The notes beneath the pieces are model-generated. The model did not search any database. It was given only the letters and a program-made list of their open reading frames with translations, and was not told the origin of the DNA. This document shows positions 3,350 to 9,861 of a stretch of 64,000 nt of DNA, one piece after another. The DNA is from Candidatus Cloacimonetes bacterium HGW-Cloacimonetes-2 (lineage in GTDB: Bacteria; Cloacimonadota; Cloacimonadia; Cloacimonadales; Cloacimonadaceae), in the NCBI GenBank assembly GCA_002842035.1, contig PHBP01000011.1, positions 1 to 64,000 of the forward strand, in the 5' to 3' direction. The position numbers and the translations under genes were made by a program. Numbering within the stretch: position 1 is the first letter of the stretch; each line of letters starts with the position of its first letter.

Positions 3350-4144
3350 ATGAAATACACATACCTTTTGATAGTGCTGAGCCTCTTGATCGCTCTGCCG
3401 GCTTGTGACAAAGATAAAAAGAAGCTACCCGCCAAGGAAATTGCCCAGGAACTTACGAACTACTCTCCCCTTCCCTCGATCAAACTAATCACCGAACAAC
3501 TTAAGATTTTAAGCATAAATCAAATCCTGCCCAGCCTCTCCACCGAGCCTTATCAATCGGGCGGAGGAATCTACAGAGACTACTTTGCAATTGGTGTGAT
3601 CAGCGCTGAATTGATGATGGCAAGCCATACTGCTGACAAAGTAAGATTTGAGAAGAACTTTACGGCGCTCTCTGCACTAGCCGCTACGACAATGCTCGGT
3701 GATATTGAACAGGAGAGCAAAGACCAGGTCAGAAGAATGGTCAGGGATAATAGCTGGGCAGAACTGGCGACCAGTATGGATGATCTCCGCAAGAAATATG
3801 AAGCTCAGCTTTGGGAAACCAATAGTTATGAGCTATATTCTCTAATGCAATTGGGAGAATGGAGCAGAATACAAGCTCTGGCTATAGATGTTCTCAAGAG
3901 CACAGACCGGATGGATCAGAGTAAGATATTGCTACAGGCTGAGTTTTGGCAGCTTTTGTTGCAGAATATGCAGTTGGTCGAGAGTCCTGATCTGATCGCA
4001 GAAGACTATTTCCGTCTGATCTATGACGAGGTGATCAAGATAGAAGAGATTCAGAGCAAAGCTGCTTCGGCTACGCTGAGTGATGCTGATCTCAGCAGTC
4101 TGAGAACACATTCTGCCAAGATATTGGAATTGATGACGAAGTAA
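3350..4144 (+). CDS. Lipoprotein of unknown function, first gene of a seven-gene operon
   Basis: The 264 residues open with a signal peptide and the lipobox LPAC (Cys at about residue 19), so the protein is probably a lipid-anchored envelope protein. The mature part is mostly helical and charged. I recognise no domain. GGAG lies four bases before the ATG. A small hairpin (CCGTA/TACGG) precedes the Shine-Dalgarno. The next gene starts eight bases after the stop, and the run of genes to 9691 is almost gap-free, so this is probably an accessory of the membrane proteins that follow. Confidence 0.8.
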   Translation: MKYTYLLIVLSLLIALPACDKDKKKLPAKEIAQELTNYSPLPSIKLITEQLKILSINQILPSLSTEPYQSGGGIYRDYFAIGVISAELMMASHTADKVRFEKNFTALSALAATTMLGDIEQESKDQVRRMVRDNSWAELATSMDDLRKKYEAQLWETNSYELYSLMQLGEWSRIQALAIDVLKSTDRMDQSKILLQAEFWQLLLQNMQLVESPDLIAEDYFRLIYDEVIKIEEIQSKAASATLSDADLSSLRTHSAKILELMTK

Positions 4145-4152
4145 GGAGCTTT

Positions 4153-5259
4153 ATGAAAGCAAGGTTTGCAACGCCTGTTTGGCTGGCTTTTGCCCTGGTA
4201 ATGGCAACTGGCGGGCTACAGGCTATTGGTATCTTTCGGATTGAGGATGCTCCCCACGATGCGGGAAATGCCCTGATCCTGAAGTGGAGTGGTTTTTCTG
4301 ATAGTACTGCAATAGTTATCGCCAAAGCCGATAGCCTTGGTGTCTATCAGGATATGGAGACATTTGCGGGAGCATCGGGAGAGCTGAAGGACGAAGAGCT
4401 CAATCCGAATGAGGCTTACAAATACCGTCTATCTGCTGATGATGGTATAACAATCTATGCAACAGGGACTCCCAAAGAGCAGTGGTTCTATCTGGATAAG
4501 CTCTCCTTTCTTTTAATGCTGATAGCCATCAGTGCCGCTATCTTGATATATATCTTCCTGGCAAGGCGCGGAAAAGACCTCTTTATCAGGAGAATCAACG
4601 GCTTGGATTCGATGGATGAAGCAATTGGCAGAGCTACCGAGAAAGGCAAGCCAATCCTCTTCGTGCCCGGTATCGGAGATCTGGATGATATACAGACCAT
4701 TGCCAGTATGACCATCCTAAGCCATCTGGCATACAAAGCTGCAGAATATGATACCGATCTGATCGTCCCCTGCAGGTTCTCTATGGTGCTTTCTGCCTCC
4801 CGTGAAGTAGTCAAGGAAGCCTATCTCAGGGCAAACAAAGCCGATACTTACAAGGAACAAAACATTTTTTATCTTACTGATGATCAATTTGGCTATGTGG
4901 CAGGTATCGATGGCATAATGGTGCGTGAACAGCCTGCTGCAAACTTCTTTTTGGGCACCTTCTATGCCGAATCGCTGATTCTGGCAGAGACGGGTTTTAG
5001 CACCGGTGCCATCCAGACTGCAGGTACCGCACAGGCTCATCAGCTTCCTTTCTTTGTAGTCTCCTGCGATTATACACTGATAGGCGAAGAGCTCTTTGCT
5101 GCTTCTGCCTACCTCTCCAAAGATCCCCAGCAATTAGGCAGCCTCAAAGGACACGACTTTGGCAAACTCTTGATCATAGTCCTGATAGTAATCGGTATCC
5201 TGATGGAAATCCTGGGGCAGAACTGGTTTGTATCGTTCTTCAGCAAGGAATTGGGATAA
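4153..5259 (+). CDS. Membrane protein, DUF6754-like, unknown function
   Basis: The 368-residue protein has a signal peptide (residues 1-24), an extracytoplasmic fibronectin-like beta domain (about 25-112), a membrane segment (about 116-137), a large cytoplasmic alpha/beta domain (about 140-340) with the stretch GKPILFVPGIGDLDDIQT, and a C-terminal membrane segment (about 344-362). The cytoplasmic part resembles proteins I associate with DUF6754, from memory. The function is unknown. A Shine-Dalgarno GGAG is five bases upstream. It is the second gene of the 3350-9691 operon and probably the core of a membrane assembly with the next three products. Confidence 0.75.
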   Translation: MKARFATPVWLAFALVMATGGLQAIGIFRIEDAPHDAGNALILKWSGFSDSTAIVIAKADSLGVYQDMETFAGASGELKDEELNPNEAYKYRLSADDGITIYATGTPKEQWFYLDKLSFLLMLIAISAAILIYIFLARRGKDLFIRRINGLDSMDEAIGRATEKGKPILFVPGIGDLDDIQTIASMTILSHLAYKAAEYDTDLIVPCRFSMVLSASREVVKEAYLRANKADTYKEQNIFYLTDDQFGYVAGIDGIMVREQPAANFFLGTFYAESLILAETGFSTGAIQTAGTAQAHQLPFFVVSCDYTLIGEELFAASAYLSKDPQQLGSLKGHDFGKLLIIVLIVIGILMEILGQNWFVSFFSKELG

Positions 5260-5271
5260 GGGGGCTGTGAA

Positions 5272-5970
5272 ATGAAGAAGAACTTACCTCTGCTGCTCGT
5301 ACTATTTGCCGGCCTAATTGTAATATTGTCTGAGTTTATCCCGCACAGACCCTTCAGCTCGATCAACAAGACCCTGGAGCAATGGATTATGATCATTTCC
5401 GGCTTTGCAATGCTACTGGGTCAAGTAAGCCTGATCCGAGTGAATAGCACCAAGATCAAAAACAAGGTCAAGGACTGGCCTTTCTATCTGGCGGGCTTGA
5501 TTAGCTTTGCCACTATGCTGATTGTTGGCGCATTGTGGGGTATGGAACAGACCCGCGGGATCCTTGGCAATGGCGAATCAATCCAGGCATGGCTGGGACT
5601 CAAGCCCTTTGACTATCTCTTTGAATATGTCTATCAGCATCTTTCTGCAACGATGTTTTCCCTCTTGGCTTTCTATATCGCTTCTGCTGCCTACAGGGCT
5701 TTTATCATCCGCAGTTTTGAATCCAATCTCCTGATGATTACAGCTGTGATCGTTATCCTTGGCAGGAGCAGTTTTGGAGCGATGTTAACAGGCTGGCTGC
5801 CTGATTCGATCGGCTTCCTGCATCTGCCCAAGCTCACTGATTTCATAATGGAGTTTCCTAATTCTGCTGCTCAGAGAGCTATTATGATCAGTGCTGCATT
5901 GGGTATAATAGGCAGCAGCCTCAGAATAATACTGGGTATAGAGCGCAGCTATCTGGGAGGTGACAAATGA
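5272..5970 (+). CDS. Polytopic membrane protein of unknown function
   Basis: The 232 residues contain about six hydrophobic segments (near 5-22, 38-55, 66-85, 113-135, 148-168 and 205-222). The loops are short, with no catalytic motif I can identify. It starts 12 bases after the previous stop and overlaps the next gene by four bases (ATGA), which argues for a stoichiometric complex with its neighbours. No family is recognised. Confidence 0.75.
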   Translation: MKKNLPLLLVLFAGLIVILSEFIPHRPFSSINKTLEQWIMIISGFAMLLGQVSLIRVNSTKIKNKVKDWPFYLAGLISFATMLIVGALWGMEQTRGILGNGESIQAWLGLKPFDYLFEYVYQHLSATMFSLLAFYIASAAYRAFIIRSFESNLLMITAVIVILGRSSFGAMLTGWLPDSIGFLHLPKLTDFIMEFPNSAAQRAIMISAALGIIGSSLRIILGIERSYLGGDK

Positions 5971-6812
5971 AGCTAAGTCCTCTCGCAGAACGCAGAATAA
6001 TCTATTTGGTGCTCTTTCTGGCAGTGATGCTGCCCCTCCTCTTCCCTATCGGCTGGAAGACAGAAAGCTCTGCCCATGTACGAATGGCACACAACCTGGT
6101 TGATAAGATGCCTGCTGGAACAGTTGCCATCATCTCTTTTGACTATGATCCAGCCTCGATGACGGAGTTGCAACCAATGGCAGAGGCTATGATCGAGCAT
6201 GCCTGGTCAAAGGGACACAAGATCATCGCTACTGCTTTATGGCCTCAGGGTCCTCAATTGGCTGATCAGGCTTTCCGCAATGTAATGGCAAAGTATCCAG
6301 GTAAGGTCTATGGTGAAGATTACGTCAATCTGGGCTATAAGGTAGGCGGAATGGTCACCATTCAGGCTATGGGACGCTCGATGGCGGAGATCTACCCCAC
6401 AGATACATCCGGTATGCAGTACAAAAGCATCCCCATCCTTGCCAAAATTACGACGATCAAAGATATCGCATACATAGCCTCGATGTCATCCGGCGATCCC
6501 GGCATCAAGCAGTGGATTATGGCTGCTCACGATATGTTCGGAGTGCCTGTTACCGGTGGCACTACTGCCATCTCAGCACCGGGCTTTATTCCCTATATCA
6601 ACAGTCAAAACCAGCTTATAGGGCTCTTGGGAGGTCTCAAGGCAGCCGCGGAGTATGAAGGCTTGATCGGAGTTGATGGTCCTGCCACAGCCAAGATGGA
6701 TTCACAATCAGTAGCCCACTTACTGATACTGATCTTCATCGCAATCGGTAATATAAAGGTCTTTCTGGCAAAGAAGAAAGCCCGCAAAGTAAACATCGAG
6801 GAGGTGAACTGA
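5967..6812 (+). CDS. Membrane-anchored protein of unknown function
   Basis: The 281 residues have an N-terminal membrane anchor (about 10-28), a soluble alpha/beta domain (about 33-245) and a C-terminal membrane segment (about 249-266). With both ends cytoplasmic, the middle domain would face the periplasm. Notable stretches are GTVAIISFDYDPASMTELQP and the Gly-rich VPVTGGTTAISAPGF. It is not similar to any enzyme I can name. It overlaps both neighbours (four bases upstream, one base downstream). Pairing with the 4153-5259 protein, which has its soluble domain on the other side, would give a complex with domains on both membrane faces (inference). Confidence 0.75.
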   Translation: MKLSPLAERRIIYLVLFLAVMLPLLFPIGWKTESSAHVRMAHNLVDKMPAGTVAIISFDYDPASMTELQPMAEAMIEHAWSKGHKIIATALWPQGPQLADQAFRNVMAKYPGKVYGEDYVNLGYKVGGMVTIQAMGRSMAEIYPTDTSGMQYKSIPILAKITTIKDIAYIASMSSGDPGIKQWIMAAHDMFGVPVTGGTTAISAPGFIPYINSQNQLIGLLGGLKAAAEYEGLIGVDGPATAKMDSQSVAHLLILIFIAIGNIKVFLAKKKARKVNIEEVN

Positions 6813-7450
6813 TGGCTGAGTTTATGAGTGTCTTCGGATTGTATCTGGGTGCTTTCTTTACCTTTAGTATCTTCAGTTTCCTCTACAAGGACAATCCCTT
6901 TTACAAGCTGGCAGAGCAGGTCTTTGTAGGCCTTTCGGCTGCCTACTGGCTGATCTATATCGTATACAATACACTTCTGCCCAATCTCTTCACCAAACTT
7001 GTAACCGATTTCAGCGGCAACCTGATCCTCCTGATCCCGGCTGCCCTGGGCGTAATGATGCTGATGAGGCTGCATCCCAAGACACAGTGGGTTTCACGCT
7101 ATCCAATCGCCTTGGTGATCGGTGTATCAGCCGGTATCAGTATGCTGAGATATATGAAGAGTGACCTGATCCAACAAATGACCGCAACGATGATCAATCC
7201 AATTGTTCCCGGATCGCTACAGACTACGATAGGCAACTTTCTGCTGATCATCGGCACTATCTGCGGGATATATTTCTTTTACTTCAGTAAGAAACAAGAA
7301 GGAGCATACGCAGTCCCATCCAAGATTGGAATGTGGTTTTTGATGGTAAGCTTTGGAGCGTCCTTTGGCTATACAGTTATGGCTCGTATATCACTGCTGA
7401 TCGGACGTTTGGAATTCTTGCTCAAAGACTGGCTGCATATTATAAACTAA
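6812..7450 (+). CDS. Polytopic membrane protein of unknown function
   Basis: The 212 residues have about five or six membrane segments (near 8-25, 38-55, 68-86, 97-112, 146-165 and 176-195). The N-terminal segment is rich in aromatic residues. No motif is recognised. The ATG shares one base with the previous stop (TGATG). It is followed after 10 bases by the acyl-activating enzyme with a GAGG ribosome-binding site, so the membrane proteins and the two enzymes are almost certainly one transcript. Confidence 0.75.
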   Translation: MAEFMSVFGLYLGAFFTFSIFSFLYKDNPFYKLAEQVFVGLSAAYWLIYIVYNTLLPNLFTKLVTDFSGNLILLIPAALGVMMLMRLHPKTQWVSRYPIALVIGVSAGISMLRYMKSDLIQQMTATMINPIVPGSLQTTIGNFLLIIGTICGIYFFYFSKKQEGAYAVPSKIGMWFLMVSFGASFGYTVMARISLLIGRLEFLLKDWLHIIN

Positions 7451-7460
7451 GAGGTACATT

Positions 7461-8990
7461 ATGGAACAACTCCACCAACGGTTCATTAAATCCGCGAAAC
7501 AGCATTCTAACAGAATGGCTGTGATAGACAAAGCTACGGACAAAGATTACACCTATGGCCGGATGCTGATCGCTTCATTGATCCTCAAAGAACAACTGGC
7601 AGGTATCCCCGGCAAGTATATCGGAATGCTCCTACCCACTTCAATGGGAGCTATGCTGGGCGTGATCGGTGCTCTCTTCAATGGAAAGATCCCTGTGATG
7701 ATAAACTATGCCACCGGAGCTATCGAAAACTGCAAGTATGCTCGCAACAAATGCAACTTCAAGACCATCATCACCAGTAAGAAGCTGCTCGATAAGCTTG
7801 GGCTTGAGCCCATAGATCATATGATCTTTGTGGAGGATATCCTGCTCAAAGTGACAGCACTATCCAAGCTGAAAGCTGCTTTGATGAGCAAGCTACCCTA
7901 TTCGGTTCTCAAGAAACTGGTTCATAGCGGCCCGTTGAACGAAGTATCCGTAATCCTCTTTACCAGCGGTAGCGAGAAAGAACCCAAGGCTGTGCAGCTT
8001 TCTCACCGGAATATCCTGCAAAACGTGGATGCCGTACCCAAGCTGGTAACCTTGGATCACAACGACGTTTATATGTCTATCCTGCCGATGTTTCACGTCT
8101 TTGGGCTCACCACCCAGTTCTGGCTTCCCGCCCTGATGGGTGCTACGATGGTGACCTATCCAAACCCCTTGGAATACAAGACCGTGAGCGATCTGGTACG
8201 TGAATACAAAGCAACCTTTATGGCTGCCACGCCTTCCTTCTATTACGGCTATTTGCAAAAGTCAAAGCCCGGAGATTTCAGCACGATGAGACTGGCGATG
8301 TCCGGAGCAGATAAACTGCCGGATAAGATCTTTGAAGGCTTTATGAAAAAGCATAATATCCCCGTTTATGAAGGTTACGGAGCTACCGAAACCAGCCCCG
8401 TGATCTCCGTGAATTACCCCGGTAATCACAAGATGGGCAGTATCGGGAGAGTGATCCCCGGTGTGCAGGTACGTATCGTGGACGTCAATACCGATAAGAT
8501 CCTTAGCCCAAATCAGGAAGGAAAGATCCTGGTCAAAGGCGATAACGTTATGGAAGGCTATCTTGGCGATCTTGAAGAAACCTCATTGCGTATCCGCAAT
8601 GGCTGGTATGAGACTGGTGATATCGGAATGATCGATGAAGATGGTTATCTCTGGCACAAAGGCAGGCTCAAACGCTTCGTCAAAGTAGGCGGTGAGATGG
8701 TCTCCCTGGTCAGAGTCGAAGAAGTTCTCTCCAAACTTCTGCCGGAGAACATCATCTGCTGCGTTGTGGACGTTCCTCATCCCACCAAGGGAGCAGATGT
8801 AGTCGCGGCAGTTACCACAGGCAATTTTGACCAACACGCAGTCCTTAAACAGCTCAAAAAAGAGCTCCCAGCTATCGCTATCCCCAAACTCTTTGAAGTA
8901 ATAGAAGATATCCCGATGATGGCTTCCGGAAAGGTCAATTTCCGCGAAGTGGAGAAGATCTGCCGGGATAAGAGTTCCAAAGGCGAATGA
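7461..8990 (+). CDS. AMP-forming acyl-CoA/acyl-ACP synthetase family protein
   Basis: The 509-residue protein has the adenylate-forming fold. Visible motifs are the P-loop-like SVILFTSGSEKEPKAVQLSHRN (about residues 160-180), YEGYGATETSPVIS (about 306-319), GWYETGDIGMIDEDGYLWHKGR (about 378-399) and a C-terminal Lys in MMASGKVNFRE (about 490-500). The N-terminal part resembles the synthetase half of Aas, which activates fatty acids for acyl-ACP or phospholipid recycling. That substrate is inference. It is embedded between four membrane proteins and a class II aldolase in one operon. It overlaps the next gene by four bases. Confidence 0.85.
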   Translation: MEQLHQRFIKSAKQHSNRMAVIDKATDKDYTYGRMLIASLILKEQLAGIPGKYIGMLLPTSMGAMLGVIGALFNGKIPVMINYATGAIENCKYARNKCNFKTIITSKKLLDKLGLEPIDHMIFVEDILLKVTALSKLKAALMSKLPYSVLKKLVHSGPLNEVSVILFTSGSEKEPKAVQLSHRNILQNVDAVPKLVTLDHNDVYMSILPMFHVFGLTTQFWLPALMGATMVTYPNPLEYKTVSDLVREYKATFMAATPSFYYGYLQKSKPGDFSTMRLAMSGADKLPDKIFEGFMKKHNIPVYEGYGATETSPVISVNYPGNHKMGSIGRVIPGVQVRIVDVNTDKILSPNQEGKILVKGDNVMEGYLGDLEETSLRIRNGWYETGDIGMIDEDGYLWHKGRLKRFVKVGGEMVSLVRVEEVLSKLLPENIICCVVDVPHPTKGADVVAAVTTGNFDQHAVLKQLKKELPAIAIPKLFEVIEDIPMMASGKVNFREVEKICRDKSSKGE

Positions 8991-9691
8991 ACAGCAATCA
9001 CCTAAAATACATTTTTGAGGCAGTCCCCGTCAGGCTGCCTCATCTGATTTCCACTCTTTGCGACATTGCTTCGCGCATCTGGCAGATGGGCTGGGCAGAA
9101 GCCAACGCCGGTAATGTTTCGGTGAATATCACGCAAGATCTGATTGACCAATACCTGATCAAGGATGCTGATCCCGGCCAGTACTATCTGGTCTCCCGCA
9201 CAGGATCTCGCTATCGCCAGATATCGAGTGATCCGATGGCAGCGCTCGTCTTGATCTGTGTAGCTGATAATCAGGACAGCATCTATCCCATAGGAGCAAG
9301 ACCCACTTCCGAATGGAACAGCCACAAAGCCCTTCAGAAGATGTTTTTGGGCAGACAGAGCTCACCCATGGTAGTGCTCCACGTGCATCCTGATGAGGTT
9401 ATTGCCGTCTCAAAGTCCGAGCTGTATTCTGATCAGGAGCGTTTTTGCAAAGCTCTGCTCGATACTCTGCCAGAGATGAAATACTATCTCAGTGAAGGTA
9501 TTGCACTCGCTCCTTATGAAGAAGCGGGAAGTATCGAGCTGGCAATCGCTTCAGCGGATTGTGTATCAAACTGCAAAGCCCTGATCTGGAGGGAGCACGG
9601 TCTTTTGGCATTTGGCAAAGATTTGGATGAGGCATTCGATTATCTGGAGATCATCTGTAAAGCTGCCAGGATATATTTCCTCACAAAGTAA
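8987..9691 (+). CDS. Class II aldolase/adducin family protein
   Basis: The 234 residues carry the class II aldolase signature: NAGNVSV (about residues 39-45), a zinc-binding HxH in VVLHVHPDEV (about 128-137) and a third His in WREHGLLAFG (about 203-212). The GWAEANAGN context is closest to rhamnulose-1-phosphate aldolase (RhaD) among family members I know, but no other rhamnose gene is nearby, so the substrate is open. It is the last gene of the 3350-9691 operon: it overlaps the synthetase by ATGA and is followed by a terminator. Confidence 0.82.
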   Translation: MNSNHLKYIFEAVPVRLPHLISTLCDIASRIWQMGWAEANAGNVSVNITQDLIDQYLIKDADPGQYYLVSRTGSRYRQISSDPMAALVLICVADNQDSIYPIGARPTSEWNSHKALQKMFLGRQSSPMVVLHVHPDEVIAVSKSELYSDQERFCKALLDTLPEMKYYLSEGIALAPYEEAGSIELAIASADCVSNCKALIWREHGLLAFGKDLDEAFDYLEIICKAARIYFLTK

Positions 9692-9784: not shown

Positions 9785-9861
9785 ATCAAGCCGATATCAA
9801 GAGCAAATCAAGTCGAACCCGGTTCGACTTGAATTGCTCTTGAATTGCTGGTGATCTGCTT
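9785..9861. repeat. 11-bp-periodic palindromic repeat, copy B
   Basis: Seven consecutive 11-bp units: ATCAAGCCGAT, ATCAAGAGCAA, ATCAAGTCGAA, CCCGGTTCGAC, TTGAATTGCTC, TTGAATTGCTG, GTGATCTGCTT. The centre is a perfect palindrome, with 11-base arms CAAGTCGAACC (9809-9819) and GGTTCGACTTG (9821-9831) around one C. The right-hand units are inverted versions of the left-hand ones. It lies between convergent genes and shares its units with copy E at 29672-29748. Confidence 0.9.

What the first reader, a model, noticed from the sequence alone, without database searches (positions are those of the whole stretch)
3350..9691. Seven-gene operon: unknown four-protein membrane assembly plus acyl-activating enzyme and class II aldolase
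A lipoprotein, a DUF6754-like protein with domains on both membrane faces, two polytopic proteins and a double-anchored protein are encoded with gaps of 8-12 bases or stop-start overlaps. They run directly into an AMP-forming synthetase and an aldolase overlapping by ATGA, and one terminator ends the set. Tight coupling implies a shared task: perhaps import, activation and cleavage of a lipid or sugar-derived compound, or envelope lipid remodelling. That role is inference; no such system is known to me.
Basis: partly seen in the sequence, partly recalled or inferred. Interest (0 to 1): 0.78.

Follow-up and report, generated by a model that had tools for sequence, protein, structure and literature searches.

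The report
Widespread unnamed ATPase-linked membrane complex
Four of the seven genes encode a four-protein membrane module found in the same order in about twenty bacterial phyla, usually with a cytosolic ATPase and its partner protein, and no described function was found for it; the acyl-activating enzyme and aldolase are additions made in only one family of Cloacimonadota.

Summary
In detail: seven same-strand genes (3350-9691) with gaps of 8, 12, -4, -1, 10 and -4 bases. The interpretation splits. The membrane core is real and much larger than supposed. B (DUF6754), C, D and E occur in that order in all Cloacimonadota loci read in full and in some 75 loci from about twenty named lineages. 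The two enzymes are local. Aldolase G and lipoprotein A sit beside the core in 11/11 loci of the window's own family, the synthetase F in 7/11, and none does at any of the 18 short-type loci outside that family or 11 paralogous loci.

The core's conserved partners are others: X (~125 aa), M (MutL/GlmL-family ASKHA ATPase, PF13941) and H (hybrid-barrel/KOW protein), commonly ordered X-M-H-B-C-D-E. This genome carries X-M-H elsewhere, plus a second set with long DUF6754 proteins and a fused M-H. In Chloroflexota all 39 DUF6754 genomes have H. I read B-C-D-E as the membrane sector of an ATP-driven machine with M-H as its motor; that they belong together is well supported, the mechanism and cargo are inferred. 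No flavin, Fe-S or Walker A signature is conserved in the membrane proteins, and no paper describing the system was found.

The parts
3350..4144 (+). A: lipoprotein-like protein, 264 aa; add-on of the window's family, not core
   Evidence: ORF; no Pfam hit; beside B in 11/11 own-family loci and beside B in none of the other loci scanned (one distant, opposite-strand copy)
4153..5259 (+). B: DUF6754 protein, 368 aa; signal peptide, extracytoplasmic FN3-like domain, TM, cytoplasmic DUF6754 domain, TM
   Evidence: PF20539 E=2.5e-121; FN3 fold match 7jgu TMt 0.76; topology
4564..5157 (+). B, cytoplasmic DUF6754 domain (about aa 138-335) with GRATExGxP and QLPFFVxxCDYTLIGEE motifs
   Evidence: about 50 positions at least 93% identical over 115 sequences of many phyla
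5272..5970 (+). C: polytopic membrane protein, 232 aa, about 6 TM (by eye), ends LRIILGIERSYLGG
   Evidence: alignment A3; hydropathy; follows B in nearly every locus
5967..6812 (+). D: double-anchored protein, 281 aa
   Evidence: alignment A1; AF2 model mean pLDDT 93.9
6054..6698 (+). D, extracytoplasmic alternating beta/alpha (Rossmann-like) domain (about aa 30-244)
   Evidence: AF2 secondary structure; no confident PDB fold match (none with E<=0.001); topology
6812..7450 (+). E: polytopic membrane protein, 212 aa, about 6 TM (by eye), ends FGYTVMARISLLIGR
   Evidence: alignment A4; hydropathy
7461..8990 (+). F: acyl-activating enzyme (acyl-ACP synthetase half of Aas-type proteins); family-specific add-on
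   Evidence: NF006386 region 615-1143, 490.7 bits (below equivalog cut-off); attached in 7/11 own-family loci, 0 elsewhere
8987..9691 (+). G: class II sugar-phosphate aldolase, nearest solved relative 1pvt, then RhaD; family-specific add-on
   Evidence: PF00596; 1pvt E=5e-26 with HxH and HG metal-ligand positions aligned
9808..9832 (.). 11-bp perfect hairpin between convergent genes, possible terminator
   Evidence: count not above shuffles

Best explanation
B-C-D-E is the membrane sector of an unnamed, ancient bacterial machine whose cytosolic part is M (MutL/GlmL-type ASKHA ATPase), H (hybrid-barrel + KOW-like protein) and often small X. Well supported by comparison: B-C-D-E belong together and with M-H, and the enzymes F and G and lipoprotein A are recent additions in one Cloacimonadota family. 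Predicted, not tested in the laboratory: B's conserved domain faces the cytoplasm and D's faces outward. Inferred: M binds and hydrolyses ATP; H docks M onto B's cytoplasmic domain (and, in Chloroflexota, onto a zinc-ribbon tail of D); the cycle is passed through the anchors of B and D and the two polytopic proteins C and E to D's domain and B's FN3 domain outside. The likeliest outcome is energised transport or extraction of a substrate at the inner membrane (about 0.35). In the window's family F and G may process a compound linked to that step, or merely share the promoter.
For: B-C-D-E order in all Cloacimonadota loci read in full and nearly all of ~78 loci of other phyla; tandem B-C-D-E copies keep the order. 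DUF6754 in 122/125 Cloacimonadota genomes. X-M-H-B-C-D-E or M-H-B-C-D-E in many phyla; of 51 non-Cloacimonadota loci with 1.5 kb or more upstream, 26 have M/H linked on the same strand, and B-C-D-E-M-H in others (L130, L115). Of 39 genomes picked because H was not seen in the fetched stretch, 34 have H elsewhere; a Rhizobium chance match has none. Chloroflexota: 39/39 DUF6754 genomes have H against 53/122 others, p=4e-12, strong H p=5e-27. H in 120/125 Cloacimonadota genomes. Own genome: X-M-H at C1 and fused M-H at C3; fused M-H directly upstream of long-type B-C-D-E in L064, and the two fused M proteins pair in the tree. M is PF13941, 437 bits. Zinc-ribbon/PxWL tail on or beside D in DUF6754 genomes, stand-alone before M-H in some genomes without DUF6754.
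Against: No experiment and no complex prediction. M-H occurs without DUF6754 in many Chloroflexota, and beside ABC/FtsX or MFS permeases in two Bacillota MAGs, so it may be a general module rather than a dedicated motor. Two fairly complete Cloacimonadota genomes (G050, G061) have H but no DUF6754 hit. Related genomes are not independent in the co-occurrence tests. About half the non-Cloacimonadota loci with enough upstream sequence lack linked M/H. Transport and ATP hydrolysis are inferred from family membership only.
Confidence: 0.6

Rival explanations
1. Structural or positional envelope complex: M works like PilM/GspL-type ASKHA proteins as a scaffold and B-C-D-E organise something in the envelope rather than transport it.
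For: ASKHA protein plus bitopic proteins with soluble domains on both faces and no Walker A ATPase; FN3 domain outside in B.
Against: Two polytopic partners C and E are unlike PilN/PilO; no PilN/PilO Pfam hits; present in lineages of varied envelope type such as Chloroflexota and Symbiobacterium.
Confidence: 0.25
2. Reactivation or maturation system: M acts as GlmL is thought to, servicing an enzyme or cofactor, with B-C-D-E as its membrane dock.
For: M belongs to the MutL/GlmL family; H has weak hybrid-barrel similarity to RnfC_N and biotin/lipoyl domains.
Against: No mutase or corrinoid gene was seen as a recurrent neighbour; M scores well below the GlmL equivalog cut-off (231 of 475 bits).
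Confidence: 0.15
3. One reading: an import, activation and cleavage (or lipid remodelling) pathway in which F and G are integral to the membrane assembly.
For: Tight coupling in the window; G beside the core in 11/11 and F in 7/11 own-family loci; F resembles the synthetase half of Aas.
Against: F and G absent beside the core outside this family, at the paralogous set in the same genome, and not among recurrent neighbours in other phyla.
Confidence: 0.07
4. Redox-driven pump like Rnf/Nqr, with H as an RnfC-like input subunit.
For: H has weak RnfC_N similarity (E=3.5e-4 and 2.6e-3, below cut-off); a very weak RnfE hit to B's last TM (E=0.079).
Against: CxxC absent in B-E and in all but 1 of 41 H; [ST]GAT flavin-attachment motif in at most 2 sequences of any subunit.
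Confidence: 0.05

Closest known systems
DUF6754 (PF20539)
   Same: B is a clear member (404 bits against a cut-off of 27)
   Different: A domain of unknown function; no paper in the searched library names it; the family says nothing of C, D, E, M or H
MutL/GlmL family (PF13941, TIGR01319)
   Same: M is a member with ASKHA phosphate motifs (GVDIGGATTDVFS)
   Different: Below NCBIfam GlmL and Or-4 equivalog cut-offs; longer (~600 aa) and paired with H
Rnf/Nqr complexes
   Same: Several membrane proteins plus a cytosolic protein with a hybrid-barrel domain faintly like RnfC_N
   Different: No conserved Fe-S or flavin motifs; an ATPase instead of redox subunits
PilMNO(P) / GspL type assemblies
   Same: Cytosolic ASKHA protein beside bitopic membrane proteins
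   Different: No PilN/PilO match; two polytopic subunits
Aas/LplT lysophospholipid recycling
   Same: F resembles the acyl-ACP synthetase half of Aas
   Different: No acyltransferase domain in F, no LplT-type gene in the operon, and F is not part of the conserved core

Membership tests
DUF6754 (PF20539) | Score over the curated Pfam cut-off along the domain | tested here: met
   404.1 bits, profile 2-256/257
MutL/GlmL (PF13941) | M over the Pfam cut-off with ASKHA phosphate motifs | tested here: met
   437 bits; conserved DIGGATTD
GlmL equivalog (NF040745) | Score over 475 bits | tested here: not met
   231.6 and 214.2 bits in relatives
Rnf/Nqr | Covalent-flavin [ST]GAT motif in a membrane subunit | tested here: not met
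   2/140 B, 0/131 C, 1/115 D, 0/110 E
Rnf/Nqr | Fe-S cysteine motifs (CxxC) in the membrane or RnfC-like subunits | tested here: not met
   0 in B-E, 1/41 H
ABC transporter | Walker A ATPase in the operon | tested here: not met
   Walker A pattern in 3/140 B and 1/115 D, absent from C and E; no ABC Pfam hit in A-G
PilMNO/GspL assembly | PilN/PilO-type bitopic subunits | tested here: not met
   no Pfam hit above cut-off for C, D or E
Known anti-phage defence systems | PADLOC model hit | tested here: not met
   0 of 8 proteins
Class II aldolase / RhaD-like | Aldolase_II domain with His metal ligands | tested here: met
   HVHP and REHG aligned to 1pvt
RhaD equivalog (TIGR02624) | Score over 400.95 bits | tested here: not met
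   95.3 bits
Aas acyl-ACP synthetase | Equivalog score and acyltransferase domain | tested here: not met
   490.7 of 1221 bits; synthetase half only
ATP-driven transporter (functional class) | ATP hydrolysis coupled to substrate movement | not testable with these tools
   needs biochemistry

The most novel reading that the evidence does not exclude
A previously undescribed class of ATP-powered membrane machine, present in about twenty bacterial phyla, in which a MutL/GlmL-type ASKHA ATPase with a hybrid-barrel adaptor drives a four-subunit membrane sector (two polytopic proteins and two double-anchored proteins whose soluble domains face opposite sides), distinct from ABC, Rnf/Nqr, rotary ATPase and secretion systems.
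Probability: 0.4. Interest if true: 0.92.

Novelty: categorically new. Interest (0 to 1): 0.7.

Why it matters
A six- to seven-part system in about twenty phyla, near universal in Cloacimonadota and with a cytoplasmic domain that hardly varies between phyla (B about 46% identical to the window copy at the median outside Cloacimonadota), must do something basic for organisms that are mostly uncultured. It also gives the poorly understood MutL/GlmL ATPase family a membrane partner, which makes its function testable. It shows how an apparent 'seven-gene operon' in one genome can mislead: the conserved seven are not these seven.

Tried and rejected
B-D homology (both look like alternating beta/alpha domains of similar order) and C-E homology (similar TM count by eye and C-terminal R-x-x-L-x-x-x-R motifs) were tested with profile-profile comparison on phylum-level and multi-phylum alignments: not significant, so not claimed. 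PDB sequence search of D, B, H and M gave nothing convincing (the weak H hits to SPT5 KOW, RraA and RNAP beta' are leads only). Foldseek of D: no match at E<=0.001 (41); of B: FN3 domain only, its cytoplasmic domain modelled poorly. DUF6754 by tblastn in plasmids and phages, and in viral contigs: none (32-34). Papers naming DUF6754, PF13941 or GlmL function in this context: none useful. PADLOC: none. The idea that neighbours of the core in other Cloacimonadota reveal a pathway: neighbours vary.

Full report
OBSERVATION. Seven same-strand ORFs at 3350-9691 are as described, with gaps of 8, 12, -4, -1, 10 and -4 bases. B is DUF6754 (PF20539, E=2.5e-121), F is AMP-binding, G is class II aldolase; A, C, D and E have no Pfam family above cut-off. 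Topology from hydropathy and flanking charges puts B's DUF6754 domain in the cytoplasm and D's domain outside. A perfect 11-bp hairpin lies at 9808-9832 between convergent genes, but terminator-like hits are not above shuffled expectation.

THE CORE IS B-C-D-E. DUF6754 is in 122 of 125 genomes of the phylum, mostly in two or three copies, one short (~370 aa) and one or two long (~950 aa). The same genome holds a paralogous set on contig C5: long B, C', D', E', a second long B, then a Rex-like gene, with no lipoprotein, synthetase or aldolase. Forty-one Cloacimonadota regions were read around short and long types: B-C-D-E recurs throughout. In trees of B, D and E the short- and long-type proteins form separate well-supported clades, with one extra Cloacimonadota record (L085) in the long B clade.

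F, G AND A ARE LOCAL ADD-ONS. In 11 loci of the window's family G and A are always beside the core and F in 7; in 18 short-type loci outside the family with more than 1.3 kb downstream, and in 11 long-type loci, none is attached. F and G themselves look like real enzymes: F resembles the synthetase half of Aas, G keeps the metal-ligand histidines when aligned to 1pvt.

DISTRIBUTION. Six-frame profile searches of the 80 loci returned found B-C-D-E in that order almost everywhere sequence allowed; exceptions include one chance match (Rhizobium, L101) and a few divergent or truncated Chloroflexota loci (L087, L098, L103). Record titles name Armatimonadota, Nitrospirota, Latescibacterota, Eisenbacteria, Methylomirabilis, WOR-3, Chloroflexota, Kofleriaceae, Gemmatimonadota, Elusimicrobia, Planctomycetota, Zixibacteria, Edwardsbacteria, Symbiobacterium and other Bacillota, Acidobacteria, Binatia, UBP2, UBP7 and Cloacimonadota. 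Tandem B-C-D-E copies occur in several (for example L113, L128, L155). B's cytoplasmic domain has about 50 positions at least 93% identical over 115 sequences.

PARTNERS M, H AND X. Clustering of neighbours showed a ~380-aa protein in 26 loci and a ~600-aa protein in 19. The second is PF13941 MutL/GlmL with ASKHA motifs; the first shows weak biotin-lipoyl and RnfC_N similarity and weak KOW (SPT5) similarity. With a small X the order is X-M-H-B-C-D-E in many phyla, or B-C-D-E-M-H in L115 and L130. Of 51 non-Cloacimonadota loci with at least 1.5 kb upstream, 26 have M/H on the same strand. Of 39 genomes chosen because H was not seen in the fetched stretch, 34 have H elsewhere; the Rhizobium control has none. 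In Chloroflexota 39 of 161 genomes have DUF6754 and all 39 have H; 53 of the other 122 have a mostly weaker H (Fisher p=4e-12; with strong H only, 33 of 34 are DUF6754 genomes, p=5e-27; relatedness not corrected). In Cloacimonadota H is in 120 of 125 genomes. The window's genome carries X-M-H on C1 and a fused M-H on C3. A fused M-H stands directly upstream of a long-type B-C-D-E in L064, and its M pairs with the C3 M in the tree, while the C1 M falls among those linked to B-C-D-E in other phyla: two parallel systems, short and long.

HINTS ON MECHANISM. No Fe-S or flavin signature and no Walker A site is conserved in B-E. D's domain is confidently modelled as an alternating beta/alpha domain (pLDDT 93.9) without a confident fold match. 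In Chloroflexota a zinc-ribbon/PxWL tail is fused to D (L130) or follows C where D would start (L087, L116), and similar tails stand alone before M-H in genomes without DUF6754 (low-complexity caveat), which suggests that M-H touches D's tail. In two Bacillota MAGs extra M-H pairs sit beside ABC/FtsX or MFS permeases, which fits a transport-related motor but also shows that M-H is not exclusive to B-C-D-E.

VERDICT. That B-C-D-E belongs with M-H (and X) I hold at about 0.85; that it is ATP-driven at about 0.6; that it moves a substrate at about 0.35. No paper describing the system was found in the library searched, which lacks most subscription journals and preprints, so prior description elsewhere cannot be excluded.

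Noticed in passing
L034:6375-14634 (own genome contig C5): Paralogous set: long B (968 aa), C', D', E', second long B (945 aa), then a Rex-like gene and a radical SAM protein.
   Followed up: yes
L200:6680-10092 and L201:7663-10494 (own genome contigs C1 and C3): Cytosolic partners of the core: X-M-H on C1 and a fused M-H protein (943 aa) on C3, matching the short and long membrane sets.
   Followed up: yes
L203, L205, L208: In two Bacillota MAGs, M-H pairs lie beside ABC/FtsX permeases or an MFS exporter instead of B-C-D-E.
   Followed up: partly
L130:1270-4662: Chloroflexota D carries a long N-terminal tail with a zinc ribbon and about 20 P-x-W-L repeats; similar tails are stand-alone genes before M-H in genomes without a DUF6754 hit.
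   Followed up: partly
L039:10706-13972, L041:10026-13292, L075:2263-5529: In many own-family relatives a ~1088-aa protein matching the ABC profile lies just before the lipoprotein gene; it is missing from that place in the window, where DUF2851 precedes A.
   Followed up: no
L079, L102, L118, L119, L148, L153 (Nitrospira and relatives): A Memo-family protein gene lies a short way downstream of E.
   Followed up: no
L111, L121, L125, L149: A gene resembling lipoate-protein ligase follows E in Eisenbacteria and one other MAG.
   Followed up: no
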